Assembly (NCBI RefSeq): GCF_003002095.1
Contig: NZ_PVZC01000009.1
Span: forward strand, 310,001 to 374,000
From: Allonocardiopsis opalescens
GTDB taxonomy: Bacteria > Actinomycetota > Actinomycetes > Streptosporangiales > Streptosporangiaceae
Reading direction: 5' to 3'
Length of the DNA stretch: 64,000 nucleotides
The notes below the pieces were generated by a model. It saw only the letters and a list, made by a program, of their open reading frames with translations. It did no database searches and was not told the origin of the DNA. The stretch's first letter is position 1. Each line of letters opens with the position of its first letter. Of the stretch, positions 15,629-54,088 are shown one piece after another. The translations under genes were made by a program, and so were the position numbers.

Positions 15629-16411
15629 TCAGGCCGAGGGCCACTCGATGCCGGAGTCGTCGGCCTGTGCGGCATCCCCGGCCTGCTCGGCCTCACGGGC
15701 GGCGCGCTCGCGTTCGCAGATCCGCCGGTAATGGGCGGCCGACTCTCTGACCTCGGGATGGAGCGAAGTGTCGTCAGCCAGGGCGGTGAAGTACTCAAGT
15801 TCGCGGTCGTGACCGAAGGCCCAGATAGCGATGAGAGCTTGCTCCGTCTCACGCCATGGCAACCAAGGGATGAACGACCTGAGCAGCGCTACGAAACGCT
15901 TCTGATCCGGCACCAGCGCGGAGTCCATTGACGGGCCGCCCTCATCACGAAAGGCGGCCTTAAGCCAGCGTATGGCATCTCTGTTCATGCCGACCACCGT
16001 GCCGTAGACCCAGAACCGACTCAGGTCGTCCACGACGGCGTCAGGAGGTTCGGTCCACCGCTCACCGAACAGGAATTCCAAGTCGACTTCGCTCGACAGC
16101 CACTCCAGCACCGTCGCCCTATCCGCATCACGGAATGTCGGCATTCGCAGATCCAGGGCTTTGCGGAAAAAGAACCACGCCTCATAGAAATGATCGTTGA
16201 GCGCCGGATAGGGGCTGCCCTCATCATCGTCATCCCGGTCCTTCAGAGCGACCACATAAGCCAGGCCGTTCTCCAAGGCCACAAGGGCCATAGCACGCTG
16301 ACTCGGCACGGCGGGAAGCCGCTGCAACTCCTCGCGCCGCCGATCTCCGTCCGACAGACACCATGGCGCGGGAAGTCGTCGCAGCACCTCTGAGAGAAGA
16401 AATCGGTTCAC
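15629..16411 (-). CDS. Partner protein of nuclease-like gene, copy 1 (immunity-like)
   Basis: A 260-residue acidic, mostly helical protein with no signal peptide or membrane segment. It begins MNRFLLSEVLRRLPAPWCLS and is a clear paralogue of the products of 31715-32452 and the broken 31265-31718. Shared blocks are SPYPALNDHF, RMPTFRDADRATV, LFGERWTEPPDAVVDDLSR and FGHDRELEYFTALADD. The GTG start overlaps the stop of the upstream nuclease-like gene in a GTGA, so translation is coupled. Coupling, acidity and duplication suggest an immunity or antitoxin protein, which is inference. No known family was recognised. Confidence 0.75.
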   Translation of the reverse strand: MNRFLLSEVLRRLPAPWCLSDGDRRREELQRLPAVPSQRAMALVALENGLAYVVALKDRDDDDEGSPYPALNDHFYEAWFFFRKALDLRMPTFRDADRATVLEWLSSEVDLEFLFGERWTEPPDAVVDDLSRFWVYGTVVGMNRDAIRWLKAAFRDEGGPSMDSALVPDQKRFVALLRSFIPWLPWRETEQALIAIWAFGHDRELEYFTALADDTSLHPEVRESAAHYRRICERERAAREAEQAGDAAQADDSGIEWPSA

Positions 16412-17478
16412 AGAAAATCCAGTCCATAGGGCCGCAGGAAATCGCGGGCGGCGTCCAAGGTCGGGAGATGCCTCGCGAACCATTCCCGAGGCGATTTCGC
16501 CTTGTGGTCAGATTCAAAGGCGCGAAGCGTCGCATCACGCAGGGCAGACAACCGGTCTGGCGAAAGCTCAATCTCATTGATTCTCATCGGAATGCTCTCA
16601 GCTATCAATCCGTTGACCGCAAAACTTTCCCAATCACTTCTATTCAACAGGCTGAACATTCCTGTCCACCCCGCATCAGTGGAGATGTGCATCTCTACCC
16701 GCCGCGCCGCAGGTTCGGCATCCCGCCACTCGACCATCCGCTCCAGTTGCTTCGGATCCTTCCGCAACTTGTCCGCAAGCGTCTGCGCCGTCGCCTTGAC
16801 CTCGGCCAGGTTGATCACGCCGTCGGTGGTCACGTAGACCAGGTCGGCCTGGGGAACCGGCGCGATATCACCGAGGACCACGCCTCCGCCGAGGTCGATG
16901 CGCTCGCCTTCCCGGGCGTCCAGCGCGATTCTGCTGTCCTCGGCCAAGGTCTCACCTCCCAGTACGCGTGCCGCGGCGCGGAGTTCGGCTGCGGCGCCGA
17001 TGGCGTGTGCGGGGTCGGTGCCGGCGAGTTGGCGCAGTATGCCGGTGAGGACGTCGTCGCGGCGGCGGGGCGATCCGGCCAGGCGGTCCGAGCGTTCCAG
17101 GTCGGCGAGGTCGCGGGCGGCCTGGTGGACGGGGATGTCGGTCCGGCGGCAGAGGGCGGCCGCGTCCGGGAGGGCGTTGAGGCGGTGCGCGGTGCGCGCG
17201 AGTACGGCCAGGTCCTCGCGGGTGCGGTGGTCCGGGGTGTCCGCTGGGCCGATGGTCGCGGCCCAGGTGTCCACCACGGTGTCGAGGTCGGTGCGGTCCG
17301 GGGCCAGGGGGTCGAGGGCGCTCGGGTCGTGTGCGGCGGCGTCGGCCTGGTCGGCGAGCCGGCGGAGCACGGTGCGGGCGTCGTCGGGCAGCCGGTCCCC
17401 GGGCGCTTCGCGCCGGGCGTCCCGGGTCTCGGCGGGGCGGTCGCCGCTCCCGGCCGTCCAGCGGTCCATCGCGCCCAC
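16408..17478 (-). CDS. PD-(D/E)XK nuclease-like protein, copy 1
   Basis: A 356-residue protein from a GTG start with GGAGG five bases upstream (the same arrangement is kept in copy 2). Residues about 150-260 show a PD-(D/E)XK pattern: Glu 165 in GAAAELRAA, Asp 212 in PVPQADLVYV and Glu 226/Lys 228 in NLAEVKATAQTLADK. The N-terminal third is helical and variable. The C-terminus ends in LRPYGLDFL, also conserved in copy 2. No secretion signal, membrane helix or helicase is seen. It could be a nuclease toxin or a defence effector. The downstream partner overlaps by four bases. Confidence 0.72.
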   Translation of the reverse strand: MGAMDRWTAGSGDRPAETRDARREAPGDRLPDDARTVLRRLADQADAAAHDPSALDPLAPDRTDLDTVVDTWAATIGPADTPDHRTREDLAVLARTAHRLNALPDAAALCRRTDIPVHQAARDLADLERSDRLAGSPRRRDDVLTGILRQLAGTDPAHAIGAAAELRAAARVLGGETLAEDSRIALDAREGERIDLGGGVVLGDIAPVPQADLVYVTTDGVINLAEVKATAQTLADKLRKDPKQLERMVEWRDAEPAARRVEMHISTDAGWTGMFSLLNRSDWESFAVNGLIAESIPMRINEIELSPDRLSALRDATLRAFESDHKAKSPREWFARHLPTLDAARDFLRPYGLDFL

Positions 17479-30775: not shown

Positions 30776-31258
30776 ATGAGCGCTGATGCCCGGGCGCGCC
30801 TCGACGCCCTCGACGAGAAGATCATCGCGCTGCTGGTGCGCGACGGCCGGGCCGGCTACGCCGCGATCGGCGCCCGGGTCGGCCTGTCGGCGCCCGCCGC
30901 CAAGCGGCGGGTCGACCGCCTGGTCGGCACCGGCGCCATCACCGGCTTCACCGCCGTGATCGACCAGGCCGTGCTCGGCTGGAGCACCGAGGCCTACGTG
31001 GAGCTGTACTGCTCGGGGCAGCCGGCGCCCTCCCTGCTGGCCCGCAGCCTGGCCGCCATCCCCGAGGTCGTGTCGGCCAGCACCGTCACCGGCGACGCCG
31101 ACACCCTGCTGCGGGTACGCGCCGCCGACGTGCGCCACTTCGAACGGGTCCTGGAACGGCTGACCGCGCTGCCGTACGTCGAGCGCACCCGCACCACCCT
31201 GGTGCTCTCCCCCCTGTTCGAGCGCCCCGCCCCGGCCGCCGAGCCGCCGACGGGGTAG
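30776..31258 (+). CDS. Lrp/AsnC-family transcriptional regulator
   Basis: A 160-residue regulator. The N-terminal helix-turn-helix reads LDEKIIALLVRDGRAGYAAI and VGLSAPAAKRRVDRL. The C-terminal RAM domain (about 65-150) should bind an amino acid and build octamers. Regulators of this type often sit beside arginine or ornithine catabolic genes. Here the dimethylargininase-like gene is 2.7 kb downstream, across the second nuclease-like module. Control of that gene is plausible but inferred. Confidence 0.9.
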   Translation: MSADARARLDALDEKIIALLVRDGRAGYAAIGARVGLSAPAAKRRVDRLVGTGAITGFTAVIDQAVLGWSTEAYVELYCSGQPAPSLLARSLAAIPEVVSASTVTGDADTLLRVRAADVRHFERVLERLTALPYVERTRTTLVLSPLFERPAPAAEPPTG

Positions 31259-31264
31259 CCGCGG

Positions 31265-31718
31265 TCAGCCGGACGGCGGCTCGGCGCCGTTTTCTTCGGC
31301 TTCACGGGTGGCGCGCTCGTCTTGGCAGATCCGCCGATAGTGCTCAACCGACTCACGTACCTTGGAGTGGAGTGCCGGATCAGCCGCCAAGGCGGCGTGA
31401 TGACAGCCACGCCACCACCGACACACGATCAGCATCCCGGAACGTCGGCATCCGCGTGGTCAGGTCCTTGCCGAAAAAGATCCACGCCTCGTCGAAAGGG
31501 TCATTGAGCGCAGGATAGGGATTCGGCTCGTCGTCGTCCTCATCAGGGCCGAGCGCCGCCATGAACGCCAGGGAGTGCTCCAAGGCGGCAAGCGCCACGC
31601 TCCGCTGGTCCGCCGTGGCCGACAAAGCCGTCAGCGCATCCCGCCGCTGGATCGAGTCCGACAGACTCCATGGCACCGGAAGCCCACGAAACACCTCAGG
31701 CAAGAGCGATCGGTTCAC
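31265..31718 (-). pseudogene. Partner (immunity-like) gene copy 3, internally deleted
   Basis: The start is a GTG overlapping the stop of copy 2 in a GTGA. The first 105 or so codons match copy 2 (MNRSLLPEVFRGLPVPWSLS, NPYPALNDPFDEAW, RMPTFRDADRVSVVAWLSS). The frame then stops at 31380. A second frame continues as LAADPALHSKVRESVEHYRR and CQDERATREAEENGAEPPSG to a stop at 31265, matching the C-terminus of copies 1 and 2. About 94 codons from the middle are gone and the frames do not join. Clearly a decayed tandem paralogue. Confidence 0.85.
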
Positions 31719-32452
31719 TCGATACCGCCCTCCTGGGCTTCACGGGCGGCGCGCTCGTCCTCGCAGATTTCGCGGTAGTGGGCGGCCTCCGCGCGGGTCT
31801 TGGGATGGAGAGCCGGGTCGTCGGCCAGCGCGGCGAAGTACTCCAGTTCGCGATCGTGACCGAGAGACCAGATGACGCCGATGGGTTGCATCGCCTCACG
31901 CCAGGGCAATCTAGGAATCGCCGACTTCAGCAGCGCCACGAAGCGCTCCCGGTCCCGCACCAGCGCTGGATCCTCCGATGGATCACCATCGCGGAAGGCG
32001 GCTTGGAGCCAGCGCACGGCGCTTGCACTCAACCCGATGGCTTTGCCATTGGCCCAGAGGCGGCTCAGGTCGTCCACGACGGCGTCAGGAGGCTCGGCCC
32101 ACCGCTCACCGAACAGCAGCTCGGTGTCGATCGACGACAGCCACGCCACCACCGTCGCACGATCAGCATCACGAAACGTCGGCATCCGCGCCGTCAAGTC
32201 CCTGCCGAAGAAGACCCATGCCTCATCGAAATGATCATTGAGCGCGGGATACGAATTCATATCGTCATCCTCCGCATACGGGCCGAGCTGCACCGTATAC
32301 GCCAAACCGCGTTCCAGAGCAGAAAGAGCCACAGCACGCTGATCCGGAGTGGCAGGCAGCCGTTCCAGTGCATCGCGCCGCTGAACCGGATCGGACAGAC
32401 ACCATGGCACTGGAAGCTCGCGCAGCACCTCAGGCAGAAGCATTCCATTCAC
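31715..32452 (-). CDS. Partner protein of nuclease-like gene, copy 2 (immunity-like)
   Basis: A 245-residue acidic protein closely related to the product of 15629-16411. Conserved blocks are PVPWCLSDPVQRRDAL, SYPALNDHFDEAWVFFGRDL, RMPTFRDADRATVVAWLSS, LFGERWAEPPDAVVDDLSR and LGHDRELEYFAALADDPALH. Its GTG overlaps the nuclease-like stop as GTGA. No known domain was recognised. An immunity or antitoxin role is inferred from coupling, acidity and the pairing being kept in two loci. Differences from copy 1 lie mainly in the loop after residue 55 and in the C-terminal tail. Confidence 0.78.
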   Translation of the reverse strand: MNGMLLPEVLRELPVPWCLSDPVQRRDALERLPATPDQRAVALSALERGLAYTVQLGPYAEDDDMNSYPALNDHFDEAWVFFGRDLTARMPTFRDADRATVVAWLSSIDTELLFGERWAEPPDAVVDDLSRLWANGKAIGLSASAVRWLQAAFRDGDPSEDPALVRDRERFVALLKSAIPRLPWREAMQPIGVIWSLGHDRELEYFAALADDPALHPKTRAEAAHYREICEDERAAREAQEGGIE

Positions 32453-33642
32453 AAGAAATCAACTCCATAAGGTCGCAGGAACTCACGCGCAGCACTCAAT
32501 GTTGGCAAATTCTGCGCGAACCAGCCACCAGGTCCACCAGGAAATTCTCGTCCGTTGTCAACGTATGCACGGAAGGTGGCGTCGAAGATCACCTGCAACT
32601 CATCCGGCATGAGAACGCGCTCTTCGATGCACACCGGAATACCGTTGACGATCAACCTTTCGATCGCATATCTTTCCTCGCTCTCCGGACGCATCCGACT
32701 GAATACCCCGGTCCAACCATTTTCAGTGGCAATGTGAACCTCCACCCGTCTCATGTCCGGATCGGCCCCCCGCCACTCCAGCATCCGGTCCAACTGATCG
32801 GGATCCTTCCGCATCTTGTCCGCGAGCGTCTGAGCCGTCGCCTTGACCTCGGCCAGGTTGACGACGCGGTCAGCGGTGACGTACACGAGGTCGGCCTGGG
32901 GGACCGGGGCGATGTCGCCCAGGACCACTCCGTTGCCGAGGTCGATGCGCTCGCCCCTGCGGGCGTCCAGGGCGATCCTGCCGCCCTCGGCGAGTCTCGC
33001 GTCGCCCAGCAGGCGCCCGGCGGCGCGCAGTTCCGCCGCGGCGCCCACCGCGTGGGCGGTCTCGCCGCCGGCGAACTGCCGCAGCAGGCCGGTGAAGATG
33101 TCGTCGCGGCGGCGGGGGGAGCCGGCCAGGCGGTCCGAGCGCTCCAGGTTCGCGAGGTCGCGGGCCACCTGGTGGGCCGGGACATCGGACCTGCCGAACA
33201 GCGCGGCCGCATCGGGAAGGGCGCCCAGGCGGTGCGCGGTCCGCGCGACGACCGTCCAGTCCCCGCGGCTCTCGCAGTCAGGCGCTTCCGCTCCGTCGAG
33301 GCGCGCCGACCAGACGTCCACCACTGCGGCGAGGTCCGGGCCCTCCCCCACCGGACCACCGAAACTGCTCTGGTCGTCGGCCGACTCGACCTCGGCCGCG
33401 AGCCGACGGAACACCGCGCGGTCGTCGTCGGTCAACCGGGGTCCGGCCCCAATGCCGCTCCGGGGTTCCCCGGACTCAGCCGGATGATCACCGACAGGGA
33501 GGGTGTCCGCCGGATCTCCCGGACGGGCGCCGCCGCGCCGCGCGTCCGGAGCCGCCGCCGGACCGCCGCCGGCAGGCCCCCGGTCCGGCGCGTCGTCCGG
33601 ACGGTCGCCGCCCTCACCCGTCCAGCGGTCCATCCCGCCCAC
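32449..33642 (-). CDS. PD-(D/E)XK nuclease-like protein, copy 2
   Basis: A 397-residue paralogue of 16408-17478. The N-terminal 70 residues form a Gly/Pro/Asp-rich, probably disordered extension longer than in copy 1. The helical segment (about 70-195) shares TAHRLGALPDAAAL and LERSDRLAGSPRRRDD. The nuclease-like core has Glu 204 (GAAAELRAA), Asp 251 (PVPQADLVYV) and Glu 265/Lys 267 (NLAEVKATAQTLADK). The C-terminal region is less conserved but ends LRPYGVDFL. GTG start with GGAGG as in copy 1. Base composition drops toward the 3' end relative to neighbours. Confidence 0.75.
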   Translation of the reverse strand: MGGMDRWTGEGGDRPDDAPDRGPAGGGPAAAPDARRGGARPGDPADTLPVGDHPAESGEPRSGIGAGPRLTDDDRAVFRRLAAEVESADDQSSFGGPVGEGPDLAAVVDVWSARLDGAEAPDCESRGDWTVVARTAHRLGALPDAAALFGRSDVPAHQVARDLANLERSDRLAGSPRRRDDIFTGLLRQFAGGETAHAVGAAAELRAAGRLLGDARLAEGGRIALDARRGERIDLGNGVVLGDIAPVPQADLVYVTADRVVNLAEVKATAQTLADKMRKDPDQLDRMLEWRGADPDMRRVEVHIATENGWTGVFSRMRPESEERYAIERLIVNGIPVCIEERVLMPDELQVIFDATFRAYVDNGREFPGGPGGWFAQNLPTLSAAREFLRPYGVDFL

Positions 33643-33992
33643 GCGACCCTCCACCCACGCACACCGGCGAAGCTGAGCGTACAACCACGGCCACCCGGCG
33701 TATACGCGTTTTCGCCGTCCCGCGAGGCAGCCCGGGCGCCCGGCACGCACCCGCCGGAGGCCATGGGCACCGGCGGCCGTGGCACCCCCGCGGACGGGCG
33801 CAGGAGCCGCCGACTCGCGGCACGCATGCCGCCCGGCCGACGCGGTGGCGGCGCACTCCCCCACGGCCGCGGGTGCTGTCATGAGCCGACGCAAGGATCA
33901 GCCGCGAGATCAGTCAAAGACACAAGAAAAGAACGTGATCACGCAGGTATACGTGCTTGGTCAGCTGGACCTCGCGCTCATATCTTTCAGTT
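33643..33992. other. Intergenic region with dimethylargininase promoter
   Basis: A 350-base gap between divergent genes. The left 200 bases are GC-rich and show nothing coding. The right 100 bases are AT-richer and hold a ten-base palindrome CGTGATCACG (33934-33943) and a leaderless-type promoter just before 33993. Confidence 0.55.
33957..33986 (+). promoter_or_regulatory. Promoter placing transcript start at the GTG codon
   Basis: TTGGTC (33957-33962) and TATCTT (33981-33986) are separated by 18 bases. The predicted transcription start falls at about 33993, the G of the GTG start. No ribosome binding site is present before that codon. This suggests a leaderless mRNA for the dimethylargininase-like gene. 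A CGTGATCACG palindrome just upstream of the -35 may be a regulator site. Confidence 0.5.
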
Positions 33993-34883
33993 GTGACCAC
34001 TCCTTCCGCGCCGGCCACCGCGCCGCCGGCCACCGCCCCGGCGCCCGCCGCTCCGGCGAGCGTCCGCCGTGCCCGCACGCGGCACTTCCTGATGTGCCCG
34101 CCGACCCACTTCCGGGTCGACTACGCCATCAACCCGTGGATGTCCACCGGCAGCCCCGTGGACGCTGCGCTGGCGCTGCGGCAGTGGGAGGGACTGCGCG
34201 CCGTCTACCAGGAGCTGGGTCACCGGGTCAGCGAACTGGTCCCCGACCCGGCGCTGCCCGACATGGTGTTCACCGCCAACGGCGCCGTCGTCCTGGACGG
34301 CGTCGCCTACCGGGCCCGGTTCCGGCACGCCGAGCGGGCCGCCGAGGCCGACGCGCACGCCGCCTGGCTGACCGCGTCGGGCTTCGAGGTGCGCGGCGGC
34401 GAGCGGATCAGCGAGGGCGAGGGCGACTTCGCGGTCACCGAGGGCGCCATCCTGGCGGGCACCGGTTTCCGCACCGAGCCCGGCGCGGCGCTGGAGGCCC
34501 AGGAGGTCTTCGGCCGCCCGGTGATCGGGCTGCGCCTGGTCGACCCGCGCTACTACCACCTCGACACGGCGCTGTTCGTGCTGGACGACGGCGCGGACGG
34601 CGGCCCGGCCGACATCGCCTACTACCCCGGTGCCTTCTCCGACGCCAGCCTGCGGGTGCTGCGCCGCCTCTTCCCCGACGCCCTGCTGGCCACCGAGGAC
34701 GACGCGGCCGTGTTCGGCCTGAACGCCGTCAGCGACGGCCGCAACGTGGTGCTGCCCGCGCCGGCCGTGCGGCTCGCGGCGCGGCTGGCCGAGCGCGGCT
34801 ACCACCCGGTCCCGGTCGACATGGGCGAGTTCGTGAAGGCGGGCGGCAGCGTCAAGTGCTGCACGCTGGAGGTGCGCGGCTGA
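33993..34883 (+). CDS. Dimethylargininase-like amidinotransferase-fold hydrolase
   Basis: A 296-residue protein of the DDAH/arginine deiminase superfamily. Key features are HFLMCPPTHFRVDYAINPWM, MVFTANGAVV, YHLDTALFVLDD with the catalytic His, EGEGDF, and the C-terminal Cys in GGSVKCCTLEV. These match proteins annotated as dimethylarginine dimethylaminohydrolase next to ornithine aminotransferase in actinomycetes. It should release citrulline from methylarginines or act on arginine. The first 30 residues are Ala/Pro-rich. No rocD follows here, unlike in many relatives. Confidence 0.87.
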   Translation: MTTPSAPATAPPATAPAPAAPASVRRARTRHFLMCPPTHFRVDYAINPWMSTGSPVDAALALRQWEGLRAVYQELGHRVSELVPDPALPDMVFTANGAVVLDGVAYRARFRHAERAAEADAHAAWLTASGFEVRGGERISEGEGDFAVTEGAILAGTGFRTEPGAALEAQEVFGRPVIGLRLVDPRYYHLDTALFVLDDGADGGPADIAYYPGAFSDASLRVLRRLFPDALLATEDDAAVFGLNAVSDGRNVVLPAPAVRLAARLAERGYHPVPVDMGEFVKAGGSVKCCTLEVRG

Positions 34884-46139: not shown

Positions 46140-47696
46140 GCGGCTATCCCCGCGTCTGCGGGGAGCATCCGGCGATAGAGGCCAAGCCCAGGCCCCGGGC
46201 GCTGTGCCATCCCTGCGCGGGGGAGAACTGGATGGGCTGGCCGGTCCCGGCGCACTGCCGGGGACCATCCCCGCGCGCGGGAAGCACGGCCGATGACCTT
46301 CTCAACCAGGTCCAGAGCCGGGACCATCCCCCCGCGCGCGGGGAGCACCAGCCGCAGCCACGCGCGAGACCGTTGGTCGAGGGACCATCCCGCGCGCGCG
46401 GGGAGCACCAGGTCCGATCCGGCGTGCTCCTGCCAGAGCCGGGACCATCCCCCCGCGCGCGGGGAGCACTCGGGCTACCAGCCAACGGATCGTGACCCCT
46501 CGGGACCATCCCCGCGCGCGCGGGGAGCACGCGAGCAGCCCCAGCCGCACCCTGGCCTCCACGGGACCATCCCCGCGCGCGCGGGGAGCACATCAGCACG
46601 CTGCCGTCGCGGCCGTAGGCCACGGGACCATCCCCGCGCGCCCCGCGCGCGCGGGGAGCACGCCAGATGATCGCGTAGGCGATGCGTTCCCACGGGACCA
46701 TCCCCGCGCGCGCGGGGAGCACAGCGACCCGACCGGCACGGCGTAGCGCCACCTGGGACCATCCCCGCGCGCGGGGAGCACCGGTCGGCGCTCGCCGACC
46801 TGCCCGCCGCTCTGGGACCATCCCCGCGCGCGCGGGGAGCACATCTGCACGGCGTTCGCGCCCAGCACGAGGTTGGGACCATCCCCGCGCGCGCGGGGAG
46901 CACGCCGATCACATGACGGTCGAGCTGCGCGCACAGGGACCATCCCCGCGCGCGCGGGGAGCACCGGCCGGCGGGGTGCCGGGCGAGGACATGGTCGGGA
47001 CCATCCCCGCGCGCGCGGGGAGCACCGGCCGGCGGGGTGCCGGGCGAGGACATGGTCGGGACCATCCCCGCGCGCGCGGGGAGCACTCGCGGTCGATCAC
47101 CGACAGGTCGTAGCTGATGGGACCATCCCCGCGCGCGCGGGGAGCACACGTTCAGGTTCGGGCGCCTGGTCGAGGTCGTGGGACCATCCCCGCGCGCGCG
47201 GGGAGCACGGCGGCCGGCCTTCCTCGCGGACGCGGCCGCGGGGACCATCCCCGCGCGCGCGGGGAGCACCCGACAATCCCGCCGACAATCCAGGTCAGGA
47301 TGGGACCATCCCCGCGCGCGCGGGGAGCACCGGTGCTCGGAATGGGGGGCGGGGTCAGACACGGGACCATCCCCGCGCGCGCGGGGAGCACAGCGAATAG
47401 GAGTGGTAGAAAATACGGCATCAGGGACCATCCCCGCGCGCGCGGGGAGCACGCCGGGCGCCCTGGTGTCATTGACTGTTGATGGGGACCATCCCCGCGC
47501 GCGCGGGGAGCACGAAATAGCCTCCGTACCGATTAGCAAGGTACAGGGACCATCCCCGCGCGCGCGGGGAGCACGCTGCAATATCCTTCTTAGCCCTACT
47601 CTGATATGGACCATCCCCGCGCGCGCGGGGAGCACCGGGCCTGAGTCGCGGCCGCGCCGTCGGCGTCGGGACCATCCCCGCGCGCGCGGGGAGCAC
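46140..47696 (-). CRISPR. Type I-E-like CRISPR array, 26 repeat units
   Basis: Twenty-six repeat units, mostly 29 bases, are spaced by 25 spacers of about 32 bases (period 61). The core is a perfect palindrome CCCCGCGCGCGCGGGG flanked by GGGACCAT and AGCAC. In the usual actinobacterial I-E orientation the array reads on the minus strand, with the leader at the right. The two left-most units (46140, 46201) are degenerate and several next ones vary in length, as expected at the old end. One unit (46624-46661) is 38 bases long. Spacers at 46965 and 47026 are identical. No cas gene is in the window. Confidence 0.97.
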
Positions 47697-48589: not shown

Positions 48590-49537
48590 TCAGGCCGCCG
48601 CGAGCCGCTGCCGGGCGGCCTTCTCGTCGCGGTCGAAGGCGCGGGTGGCCCGCCACAGGCCGTAGATGATCACGGCCTCGAAGAGCAGCAGCGCCGCGGC
48701 CGCTCCGACCGTGAGCACCGGGATGGCCGCCGCCCACAGGCCCGTCAAGAGCGGAGCTACCACGAAGACCACCATCTCAAGCTCGATCCCGCTGACGAGG
48801 TGGGTGCGGATGCGATGCCGCAGCATGGCGGCGCGCATCCGCGCGTAGAGCGGGAACCGGGCCGACAGGGTGCCGGGCGCGGGGGTCGGGGGCGCGTCGG
48901 CCAGGCCGACCGCCTCGGGGTCGTCGTCGGCCGCGGGGGGCGCCGCGGGCGCGGGCTCGGGGCCGCCGAAGCGCTCGCGCAGCCGCTCGGACCACTCGGC
49001 CCGGCGGTCGGCCATGGCGCGGCGCACCTTGGCGGCGTTGAAGGCGCTGAGGTAGCGGATCAGCTCGGCGCCGATGACGACGGATACCAGCCACACGTAC
49101 AGCACCTCGCCGGTGGCGAGGTACTGGCCGCCCATCAGGCTCGCCGAGCACAGCACCACCCGGACCCGGTCGAGGATGAAGTCGAGCCAGGTGCCGAACA
49201 TCGAGCCGGTGCCCTTGAGCCGGGCGATCTTGCCGTCCATGCAGTCCAGCACGAAGCTGAAGTGGAACAGCAGCGCGCCCGCGACCAGCCACGGCCAGTC
49301 GGCCAGCCAGAAGCAGGCCGCCGAGCCGAGCCCGAGCACCAGCGCGACCAGGGTGAGCTGATCGGGAGTGATCGAGGTGCGGTTGGCCGCCACCTTCACC
49401 AGCGGCCCGGCCAGCGGGTCGACCAGCAGCACCGTCCACCAGGAGTCGCGCTTCTTGTAGGTGCGCTCGCGCACCTCGGCGAGGGTGAAGGCGGGGCGCG
49501 CGGCGGACGGTTGCGACGGCGGTGGGGCACTGGGCAC
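48590..49537 (-). CDS. CDP-alcohol phosphatidyltransferase, copy 1
   Basis: A 315-residue membrane enzyme. The catalytic motif D-x2-DG-x2-AR-x8-G-x3-D-x3-D is present in DCMDGKIARLKGTGSMFGTW, which continues LDFILD. About six hydrophobic segments surround it. An Ala/Pro/Asp-rich insert (about 195-225) and a C-terminal pair of helices extend it beyond the minimal family. It would transfer a phospho-alcohol from a CDP-activated donor. Substrate unknown. It is a paralogue of the next gene upstream. Confidence 0.88.
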   Translation of the reverse strand: MPSAPPPSQPSAARPAFTLAEVRERTYKKRDSWWTVLLVDPLAGPLVKVAANRTSITPDQLTLVALVLGLGSAACFWLADWPWLVAGALLFHFSFVLDCMDGKIARLKGTGSMFGTWLDFILDRVRVVLCSASLMGGQYLATGEVLYVWLVSVVIGAELIRYLSAFNAAKVRRAMADRRAEWSERLRERFGGPEPAPAAPPAADDDPEAVGLADAPPTPAPGTLSARFPLYARMRAAMLRHRIRTHLVSGIELEMVVFVVAPLLTGLWAAAIPVLTVGAAAALLLFEAVIIYGLWRATRAFDRDEKAARQRLAAA

Positions 49538-49661: not shown

Positions 49662-50801
49662 TCAGCCCGCGGCGCCGGGCCCGGGCGCCCCCACCAGGTA
49701 CCGTTCGCGCCGCTCCGTCAGCTCGGCCAGGGCGGCGTCGATCTGCTCGCAGGCGCGCTGGAAGTCGCGGGTGGACAGCCACAGCTTGTAGATGATGACG
49801 AGTTCGAAGGCGAGCAGCAGCGCGCCCACGACGGCGACGGTGACCGGGATGGCGGCGGCGGAGAACATGCCGAGCAGCGGCGCGACGATGAAGACGCCCA
49901 TCTGGAACTCGATGCCGGAGACCAGGTGCGGCCGGATGCGGCGGCGGCGCAGCGCGTCGCGGACGCGGGCGTACCACGGGAAACGGGAGTGGAAGCGCTG
50001 CTGGAGGGCGGTCGCCTGCATGCCGCGGACGGTGATCGGCGAGCGCACCGCCGGGGCGCCCGCGGCCGCGTCGGCCGTCGCCTCGAATTCTTCGGCCGCC
50101 TCCGCCGCCTCGGCCTCTTCCTCCTGGGCGGTGTCGGCGTCGTCCATCAGCTCGGCCGGGACGGGCTCGTGCGCGCCCAGCCTCCTGGCCAGTTCCTCGA
50201 TGCGGGCCCGGACCTCGCTGCCGCCCTGGGCCGCGTCGGCGTCGGCGGAGCGCTCGGCGGCCTCGGCCTGGAGCAGCCGCCTGAGCTCGCGCACCGAGCG
50301 CTTGAGCCGGCCGCGCATCGCGCCGCGCACCTTGGCGACCTGGAGGGCGTTGAGGTAGCGGAACATGTCGAGGAAGACCACCGCGAGCGCGACCCACAGG
50401 AAGACGGCGTCTCCGGTGGCGGCGAACTGGCCGGCCGCCAGCGCGACGGCGCAGATCAGCACGCGCAGCCGGTCGAAGACGTAGTCGAGCCAGGTGCCGA
50501 AGAGCGAGCCGGTGCCCTTGAGCCGGGCGATCTTGCCGTCCATGCAGTCCAGCACGAAGCTGAAGTGGAAGAGCACCGCCCCGGCCAGCAGCCAGGGCCA
50601 GTCGGCCATCGCGAAGCACACGGCGGCCGCGAGGCCGAGCACCAGGGCGCCCAGGGTGAGCTGGTTGGGCGTGACCGAGGTGCGGTTGGCGGTGATCCGC
50701 ACCAGGCGCGAGGCCAGCGGATCCACCAGCAGCACCGTCCACCAGGAGTCCCGGCCCTTGTAGGTGCGCTCTCGGACGTCGGACAGGGTGAAGCGCTGCA
50801 T
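49662..50801 (-). CDS. CDP-alcohol phosphatidyltransferase, copy 2
   Basis: A 379-residue paralogue starting MQRFTLSDVRERTYKGRDSW. It shares the catalytic segment DCMDGKIARLKGTGSLFGTW, then LDYVFD, and near-identical flanks with copy 1. It differs in a long acidic Ala/Glu insert (about 190-255) that may be coiled coil. Tandem copies with such inserts occur in actinomycetes with unusual phospholipid or polyol-phosphate products. ATG with GGGAG upstream, over an earlier start at 50852. Copies are separated by 124 bases. Confidence 0.88.
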   Translation of the reverse strand: MQRFTLSDVRERTYKGRDSWWTVLLVDPLASRLVRITANRTSVTPNQLTLGALVLGLAAAVCFAMADWPWLLAGAVLFHFSFVLDCMDGKIARLKGTGSLFGTWLDYVFDRLRVLICAVALAAGQFAATGDAVFLWVALAVVFLDMFRYLNALQVAKVRGAMRGRLKRSVRELRRLLQAEAAERSADADAAQGGSEVRARIEELARRLGAHEPVPAELMDDADTAQEEEAEAAEAAEEFEATADAAAGAPAVRSPITVRGMQATALQQRFHSRFPWYARVRDALRRRRIRPHLVSGIEFQMGVFIVAPLLGMFSAAAIPVTVAVVGALLLAFELVIIYKLWLSTRDFQRACEQIDAALAELTERRERYLVGAPGPGAAG

Positions 50802-53089: not shown

Positions 53090-53163
53090 GGGGCCGTAGC
53101 CCAACGGCAGGAGGCGAACGGTTTAGGTCCGTTACAGTGCGGGTTCGAATCCCGCCGGCCCTA
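53090..53163 (+). tRNA. tRNA with UAG anticodon and short variable loop
   Basis: A 74-base cloverleaf. Acceptor stem 53090-53096 pairs with 53156-53162 (first pair G-U). The D arm has a three-base-pair stem, the anticodon stem is 53117-53121/53129-53133, and the T arm is normal with TTCGAAT. The seven-base loop TTTAGGT gives anticodon UAG (CUA, leucine). The variable loop is only five bases, whereas leucine tRNAs have a long arm. No CCA is encoded. Folding is good, so it is a real tRNA-like gene, but its identity is unsettled. Confidence 0.8.
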
Positions 53164-54088
53164 CGCTCGGGTGTGCTCTTGCTTGCTCGCTTCGCTCGCT
53201 GCGCCGGCTCGCTTCGGCGTGCCAGCCCCGGGGGTACGACCCCCGGACCCCCGCGCCAGGGGCTCCGCCCCTGGACCCCGGTGGACTGAGGTGACGCTAG
53301 AACCGTTTTGAGCGCGGTTATAGGGGACTTGGGTCACCGCGTTACCCCCACTCCCGCCGGACCGAGATGACGTGCTCACCGTCGTGACCGCGGTTGTGGG
53401 GGAACAGGGTCACCGCGTTAACCCCACCTCCACCGGACCGAGACGACGCGCTCACCGTCGTGACCGCGGTTGTGGGGGAACAGGGTCACCGCGTTAACCC
53501 CACCTCCACCGGACCGAGACGACGCGCTCACCGTCGTGGCCGCGGTTGTTCTGGGGGCCGAGGTCACTACCACCCCACTTGCTTCGGTTCTGGTGCTCTG
53601 CGGTGTGGGCTTTGCTCGCTACGCTCGCTCGCCTGGTTCCGCGTGTATGGACGGCGGGGTTCTCGGACGCGGTGTGCGCCCTTGCTCCCTTCGCTCGCTT
53701 GGCTGCCGGTGTTGGTCTGCGGGTCTGTCTGGTCGTGGGTTCGGGGACCGGGGTGGAGACTCCTGGCCGGCGCTGTCGCGGTGACGGCGTGGGTGGTCTT
53801 TCGCAGCCTGCGCGACATGCTGAAGTAGACCCGGCCCGTCGGTACCGCCTGCGGCGCCGCCGCCGGGTGCTGAGGTCCACACGGCTCCACACACCTAGTT
53901 TATTCCACATGAAGGAAATGATGCGGATATCTATTGCAACCTGCGGAATGGAGCCGTAACTTGCCAGAAACCTGGTTGCCGCGTGCGGAATGCCCGCGCG
54001 GCACCCGGGAACCACGGGGGCCGATAGCGCCCGAGTCGGCGGCCTGGGGCCGGTGTGCTCCGGGCGCGGTGAGAAGGGCGGTGGTTCG
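53164..54088. other. Non-coding region after tRNA with tandem repeats
   Basis: A 925-base stretch with no supported gene. It has CTCGCT-rich segments at about 53180-53210 and 53610-53700, a run of 76-base tandem repeats (53284-53565), and an AT-richer stretch at about 53895-53960 that probably carries the promoter of the ABC operon. Open frames here are short and low in complexity. Confidence 0.6.
53284..53565 (+). repeat. 76-base tandem repeats, three copies plus a decayed one
   Basis: Copies start at 53337, 53413 and 53489 with a period of 76 bases. Copies one and two are nearly identical after the first 35 bases, and two and three after the first base. A decayed copy occupies 53284-53336. 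Each unit contains CCGGACCGAGA, GCTCACCGTCGTG and GTGGGGGAACAGGGTCACC or close variants. The third copy ends in a diverged block at 53550-53565. No protein is encoded. Confidence 0.85.

What the first reader, a model, noticed from the sequence alone, without database searches (positions are those of the whole stretch)
31265..33642. Second copy of the module plus a tandem, decayed third partner gene
Copy 2 keeps the overlap, GTG start, GGAGG spacing and catalytic-type residues of copy 1. Directly after it is a third partner gene with its own GTGA coupling but missing about 94 central codons and frame-broken. Extra partner genes following a toxin pair are typical of immunity arrays, where spare immunity genes protect against related toxins. 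That reading is inference.
Basis: partly seen in the sequence, partly recalled or inferred. Interest (0 to 1): 0.78.

Follow-up and report, generated by a model that had tools for sequence, protein, structure and literature searches.

The report
Nuclease toxin–immunity module with decayed spare
This stretch holds a predicted DNA/RNA-cutting toxin gene, the gene that most likely protects the cell from it, and a recently broken spare protector; relatives in other actinomycetes carry the same nuclease on the end of pilus-like proteins, followed by similar runs of protector genes, so it looks like part of a little-described bacterial weapon family.

Summary
On the minus strand lie a nuclease-like gene (33642-32449), a partner overlapping it by GTGA (32452-31715), and a second-partner remnant (31718-31265) with its own GTGA overlap and one ~296-bp frame-shifting internal deletion. 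Five such pairs exist in this genome. No Pfam, NCBIfam, PADLOC or PHROG model matches at E<0.001.

In 17 other genomes (16 of 393 in one Streptomyces-like genus, one in the window's own family) the nuclease is usually the C-terminal domain of a protein with an Flp-pilin-like segment. In the loci whose surroundings I checked, Tad pilus genes lie beside it. A partner homologue follows directly in 17 of 19 cases, and nine carry two tandem partner domains. Three show decayed tails; one carries an orphan partner array matching another strain's toxin type. Residues E, D, E-x-K are invariant across 24 sequences; Q is nearly so.

Best reading: a new polymorphic-toxin nuclease and its immunity protein. 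The window's version lacks the pilin carrier; the third gene is a spare immunity gene broken recently by one deletion. The array reading is supported, but this copy is broken and its protection unproven. Toxicity, delivery and binding are inferred. No confident structure was obtained.

The parts
32449..33642 (-). Copy 2 nuclease-like gene (GTG 33642 or ATG 33633; stop 32449-32451). Conserved core about 33258-32452; E76, D123, E137-x-K139, Q155 in core numbering
   Evidence: ORF and start; 24-sequence alignment A9
31715..32452 (-). Partner 2 (predicted immunity protein), GTGA overlap with the nuclease stop
   Evidence: homologues follow the nuclease domain in other genomes
31265..31718 (-). Third gene: decayed second partner. 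N part 31718-31398 (open frame to 31380), C part 31402-31268 in another frame; ~296 bp missing between them
   Evidence: tblastn and DNA alignment
16408..17478 (-). Copy 1 nuclease-like gene
15635..16411 (-). Partner 1, GTGA overlap with copy 1 nuclease
30776..31258 (+). Lrp/AsnC-type regulator gene, left flank of the inserted module (family name from sequence, own knowledge)
   Evidence: In eight relatives a homologue lies upstream of ddaH on the same strand, seven of them within 120-180 bp
33957..34883 (+). Dimethylargininase (ddaH)-like gene, right flank of the inserted module (longest ORF; true start probably a little inside; name from own knowledge)

Best explanation
The pair is a toxin and its immunity protein. 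The first gene encodes a PD-(D/E)xK-type nuclease domain that cuts nucleic acid. The second, translated in step through the 4-base overlap, binds and blocks that nuclease in the producing cell and its kin. The third gene is a tandem copy of the immunity gene that was kept under selection as a spare, probably against related toxins, and was then broken by a single deletion. The family belongs to polymorphic toxins whose carriers in other actinomycetes are Tad/Flp-pilin-like proteins; this genome holds five carrier-less cassettes of it. Shown: gene pairs, homology, array architecture, catalytic-type residues, carrier context in relatives, insertion between two normally adjacent genes. Inferred: nuclease activity, toxicity, inhibition by the partner, protective value of the spare, delivery route.
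For: Five nuclease+partner pairs in this genome, all in the same order and with a 4-base overlap. In another genus of the family the nuclease is the C-terminus of a 583-aa pilin-leader protein, with a partner homologue directly downstream (E 3e-20; hhalign 97%). In a Streptomyces-like genus, 16 of 393 genomes have it. The type IVb prepilin-like motif (GQTAVEY plus hydrophobic stretch) occurs in 16 of 19 loci. Carrier parts are 76-88% identical while nuclease parts are 40-47% in the same pairs, among the 14 most discordant pairs listed. A neighbouring carrier holds a PT-HINT pretoxin domain, E 1e-11. Tad pilus genes (RcpC, TadE, T2SSE, T2SSF, Flp, Peptidase_A24) lie beside the toxin in the loci checked. 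A partner follows in 17 of 19 loci; 9 carry two partner domains and 3 show decayed remnants. Nuclease and partner distances correlate, r 0.88, 0 of 2000 permutations. Invariant E, D, ExK in 24 sequences; the best Pfam echo is Hjc, E 0.0014, over the ExK strand, in two members. Purifying selection: omega 0.2-0.4 on nuclease and partner, 0.13-0.22 on the remnant's N part.
Against: No toxicity or inhibition data. Both structure models are of low confidence (pLDDT 60 and 45), and the fold search with the first found nothing significant. The proteins in this genome have no signal, transmembrane or pilin segment, so export is unexplained. One carrier nuclease (L064) has no detectable partner. The third partner is broken. 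The correlation of distances is partly expected from shared descent.
Confidence: 0.72

Rival explanations
1. In this genome the modules are not exported. They act inside the cell as toxin-antitoxin or abortive-infection pairs, domesticated from the polymorphic-toxin family; the partner is an antitoxin and the third gene is a redundant antitoxin.
For: No export or pilin segment in any of the five copies. The copies sit singly among ordinary chromosomal genes; copy 2 is inserted between an Lrp gene and ddaH. Each has its own upstream region; those of two copies are clearly conserved.
Against: No match to PADLOC models. Homologues elsewhere sit on Tad-pilin carriers. Extra antitoxin copies in tandem are less typical of this kind (own knowledge).
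Confidence: 0.25
2. The third gene never served as a spare. It is neutral debris of a tandem duplication or of a displaced toxin module.
For: It is broken. Remnants of partners and nucleases at the far end of arrays are seen in L054, L061 and L066, as expected of displaced modules.
Against: Omega of 0.13-0.22 over its N part and the absence of further stops show it was under constraint for most of its divergence. Intact tandem partners are common in relatives.
Confidence: 0.3
3. The nuclease-like protein is a DNA-processing enzyme (resolvase- or repair-like) and the partner a stable subunit; no conflict role.
For: Weak similarity to archaeal Hjc resolvase in two members.
Against: Fusion to variable pilin-like carriers, patchy distribution (1 of 60 close relatives), partner arrays and decay are not expected of a housekeeping subunit.
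Confidence: 0.04

Closest known systems
Polymorphic toxin systems with REase-fold toxin domains, especially Tox-REase-6 (E, D, ExK, Q, Y; Imm49) and Tox-REase-7 (GxxxE, IxD, ExK, Q; HEAT-repeat immunity) (PMC3482391)
   Same: REase-type residue pattern E, D, ExK, Q; C-terminal toxin domain on variable carriers; immunity gene next door
   Different: No Pfam match of the 24 members to a described toxin nuclease model among the families shown; the partners matched no Imm model; the words pilin, Flp, TadE and pilus do not occur in the held text of that survey
Polyimmunity loci and polyimmunity proteins (PMC3482391); T6SS immunity arrays of Vibrio (PMC5361080); tandem esaG immunity genes of Staphylococcus (PMC9484751)
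   Same: Tandem paralogous immunity genes behind the toxin, fused multi-domain immunity proteins, orphan immunity genes of another toxin type, remnants of displaced modules
   Different: Other toxin and immunity families; here at most one spare, and it is broken in the window
Flp-pilin-linked ARC (CD38-like) toxins, mentioned in PMC12605009
   Same: Toxin domain carried on an Flp pilin
   Different: ADP-ribosyl cyclase rather than nuclease; only a passing mention, no array
Kil, a Tad-like apparatus for contact-dependent killing in Myxococcus (PMC8460266)
   Same: Tad machinery tied to contact killing
   Different: Gram-negative; whether Kil secretes toxins is unknown; no pilin-fused nuclease found in the passages read

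Membership tests
Polymorphic toxin system | Conserved carrier with exchangeable or hypervariable C-terminal toxin domain | tested here: met
   In relatives: carrier 76-88% vs nuclease 40-47% identity in the most discordant pairs; another pilin-leader carrier in L066 bears PT-HINT. In the window's genome no carrier form was found
Polymorphic toxin system | Export-related N-terminus | tested here: not met
   For the five own copies: no hydrophobic or pilin segment. Met in 16 of 19 relatives. So the window pair is filed as a carrier-less relative, not as a complete system
Polymorphic toxin system | Immunity gene directly after the toxin gene | tested here: met
   Five of five own copies; 17 of 19 elsewhere. 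Immunity function not shown
Polyimmunity / immunity array | Two or more related immunity genes or domains in tandem | tested here: met
   Window (second copy broken); 9 of 19 relatives
Polyimmunity / immunity array | Extra members protect against non-self toxins | not testable with these tools
   Suggestive only: G887 carries an orphan double partner of the L029 toxin type without that toxin
PD-(D/E)xK (restriction-endonuclease-like) fold | Catalytic E, D, E-x-K (and Q) in alpha-beta-beta-beta-alpha-beta order | tested here: inconclusive
   Residues invariant or nearly so; predicted order of elements agrees, but model confidence is low and the fold search was negative; Hjc echo below the curated cut-off
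Described Tox-REase / Imm families | Match to the curated family model | tested here: not met
   No such match among families at E <= 1 for 24 nuclease members (three of the 28 families were not displayed) nor for the window partners
Known anti-phage defence system | Match to a PADLOC model | tested here: not met

The most novel reading that the evidence does not exclude
Actinomycetes use the Tad (Flp) pilus machine to deliver pilin-fused nuclease toxins to neighbouring cells, with tandem immunity arrays. The window's genome has turned the same nuclease/immunity cassette into five carrier-less, independently expressed modules with a separate role inside the cell or an unknown export route.
Probability: 0.35. 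Interest if true: 0.8.

Novelty: new variant of a known kind. Interest (0 to 1): 0.6.

Why it matters
It adds a nuclease/immunity family without a model in Pfam, NCBIfam or PHROGs, on a carrier type (Flp/Tad pilin) that I found mentioned only once in passing for toxins (PMC12605009). It shows immunity arrays, fused double immunity proteins and orphan immunity genes in Streptomyces-like genomes, and makes a testable case that Tad pili of actinomycetes deliver toxins. The window's five carrier-less copies allow the question whether such cassettes can be domesticated as cell-internal systems.

Tried and rejected
Two degenerate-pattern scans of 84,980 species genomes and two of IMG/VR, plus tblastn of plasmids and phages, found no relative. 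Only profile searches of whole genomes did. In the phylum-wide scan the one new genome was marginal (G873, E 8e-4) and was not used. AlphaFold models with 5 and 2 rows were poor; Foldseek on the first found nothing. PDB sequence searches gave only chance hits. No clear terminal repeats of a mobile element were found around copy 2. A carrier-only search to count other C-termini failed on the server. My first Lrp check used a wrong reading frame and was repeated. A 58-aa partner hit in L022 (12591) is probably chance.

Full report
What is there. On the minus strand of window 31265-33642 lie a nuclease-like gene (GTG 33642, stop 32449), a partner gene whose GTG overlaps the nuclease stop by GTGA (32452-31715), and a third gene whose GTG overlaps the partner's stop in the same way (31718-31265). 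Copy 1 of the pair is at 17478-15635. The nucleases are 63% and the partners 66-67% identical. The third gene matches partner 2 over codons 1-107 (about 75-77% nucleotide identity) and again over the last ~41 codons in another frame; about 296 bp are missing between. There is no other stop or frame break in the kept parts, so a single recent deletion explains the decay.

Dating. Synonymous divergence (NG86) is 0.76 for the two nucleases, 0.80 for the two partners and 0.82 for the remnant against partner 2; all are old and near saturation. At protein level the remnant is nearer to partner 2 (71%) than to partner 1 (61%), and it groups with partner 2 in the tree with weak support (83/28). Omega is 0.2-0.4 for the nuclease and partner and 0.13-0.22 for the N part of the remnant, so the remnant was constrained for most of its history and decayed late.

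The module as a unit. The genome holds five nuclease genes and behind each a partner: two in the window and one each on contigs C1, C5 and C6. The nuclease/partner overlap is GTGA in four and TTGA in one. Pfam, NCBIfam, PADLOC and PHROGs give no match at E<0.001 for the proteins scanned; weak chance-level echoes only.

Where it sits. In eight relatives a homologue of the Lrp/AsnC-type gene at 30776-31258 lies upstream of a ddaH homologue on the same strand, in seven of them within 120-180 bp. In the window the 2.4-kb module lies between these genes, in the opposite orientation, so copy 2 is an insertion into ordinary chromosome. I found no clear terminal repeats.

Relatives. The single protein finds nothing in 59 close relatives. 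With a profile, one genome of the same family (G184), one of the class (G481) and then 16 of 393 genomes in G481's genus, G481 included, carry the domain. The genus is unnamed; genome size makes Streptomyces likely (inference). In 16 of 19 loci the nuclease belongs to a protein with a type IVb prepilin-like segment such as GQTAVEYAGLIAVVAAIIVAL, and in most it is the C-terminal domain. TadE/G-like genes, a prepilin peptidase, RcpC/CpaB, TadE, TadA-type ATPase, T2SSF proteins and an Flp pilin lie beside the toxins in the loci checked. The most discordant pairs of carriers are 76-88% identical outside the nuclease but 40-47% within it. In one locus a second pilin carrier has a PT-HINT pretoxin domain. 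These are hallmarks of polymorphic toxins (PMC3482391).

Partner arrays. A model built only from the five own partners and G184 already finds partners in other loci (down to E 5e-14). With iteration a partner lies directly downstream on the same strand in 17 of 19 loci; L056 has it on the other strand and L064 has none. Iterated E-values are partly circular. Partner segments are nearly confined to the neighbourhood of the nuclease: 34 within 1.5 kb and 4 elsewhere in 267 kb, three of the four being the orphan array of L061. Nine loci have two partner domains fused in one gene. L054 has toxin, double partner, second carrier-less nuclease with its own partner, then a broken partner. L061 has toxin and partner, then an orphan double partner of the L029 toxin type, then a frame-broken nuclease with an intact partner of a third type. 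L066 ends in a partner fragment.

Nuclease nature. Across 24 sequences as low as ~20% identical, E76, D123, E137, K139 and W162 are invariant and Q155 nearly so, the residue pattern given for Tox-REase families (E, D, ExK, Q; PMC3482391). The best weak Pfam echo is the resolvase Hjc (two members, E 0.0014, below cut-off), aligned over the ExK strand. The order of predicted elements fits, but model confidence is low, so the fold is likely, not shown.

Mechanism. Most likely the nuclease is toxic and the partner neutralises it; the overlap couples their translation; extra partners widen or back up immunity. In relatives the pilin segment suggests export through the Tad machine; a Tad-like apparatus is required for contact killing in Myxococcus, although whether it secretes toxin is unknown (PMC8460266). 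The window's copies have no such segment. They may be stand-alone cassettes awaiting recombination, toxins with another route, or domesticated internal systems. I put the toxin-immunity reading at 0.72 and the internal reading at 0.25 for this genome.

Limits.

Noticed in passing
window 46259-47696: CRISPR array of the type I-E kind: 29-base repeat GGGACCATCCCCGCGCGCGCGGGGAGCAC with 61-base period, more than 20 units, a tandemly duplicated repeat-spacer unit at 46936/46997 and a slightly aberrant unit near 46633.
   Followed up: partly
window 53090-53549: tRNA-Leu followed by two direct copies of about 197 bases at 88% identity, offset by 76 bases.
   Followed up: no
window 48922-49490 and 50234-50793: A 77% identical DNA duplication of about 570 bases, probably paralogous genes.
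   Followed up: no
L014 and L015, upstream of the nuclease start (5368+ and 6806+): Copies C5 and C6 share a conserved upstream stretch with a palindrome-like CTGGCC-TGATGC-GGCCAG and GGCTACGTTCGGT, a possible promoter/operator.
   Followed up: no
L022 7633-8886: The partner in G184 carries about 160 extra C-terminal residues beyond the partner domain, perhaps a second, unrelated immunity domain.
   Followed up: no
L066 3848-5584 (minus): A second pilin-leader carrier with a PT-HINT domain directly beyond the immunity array.
   Followed up: partly
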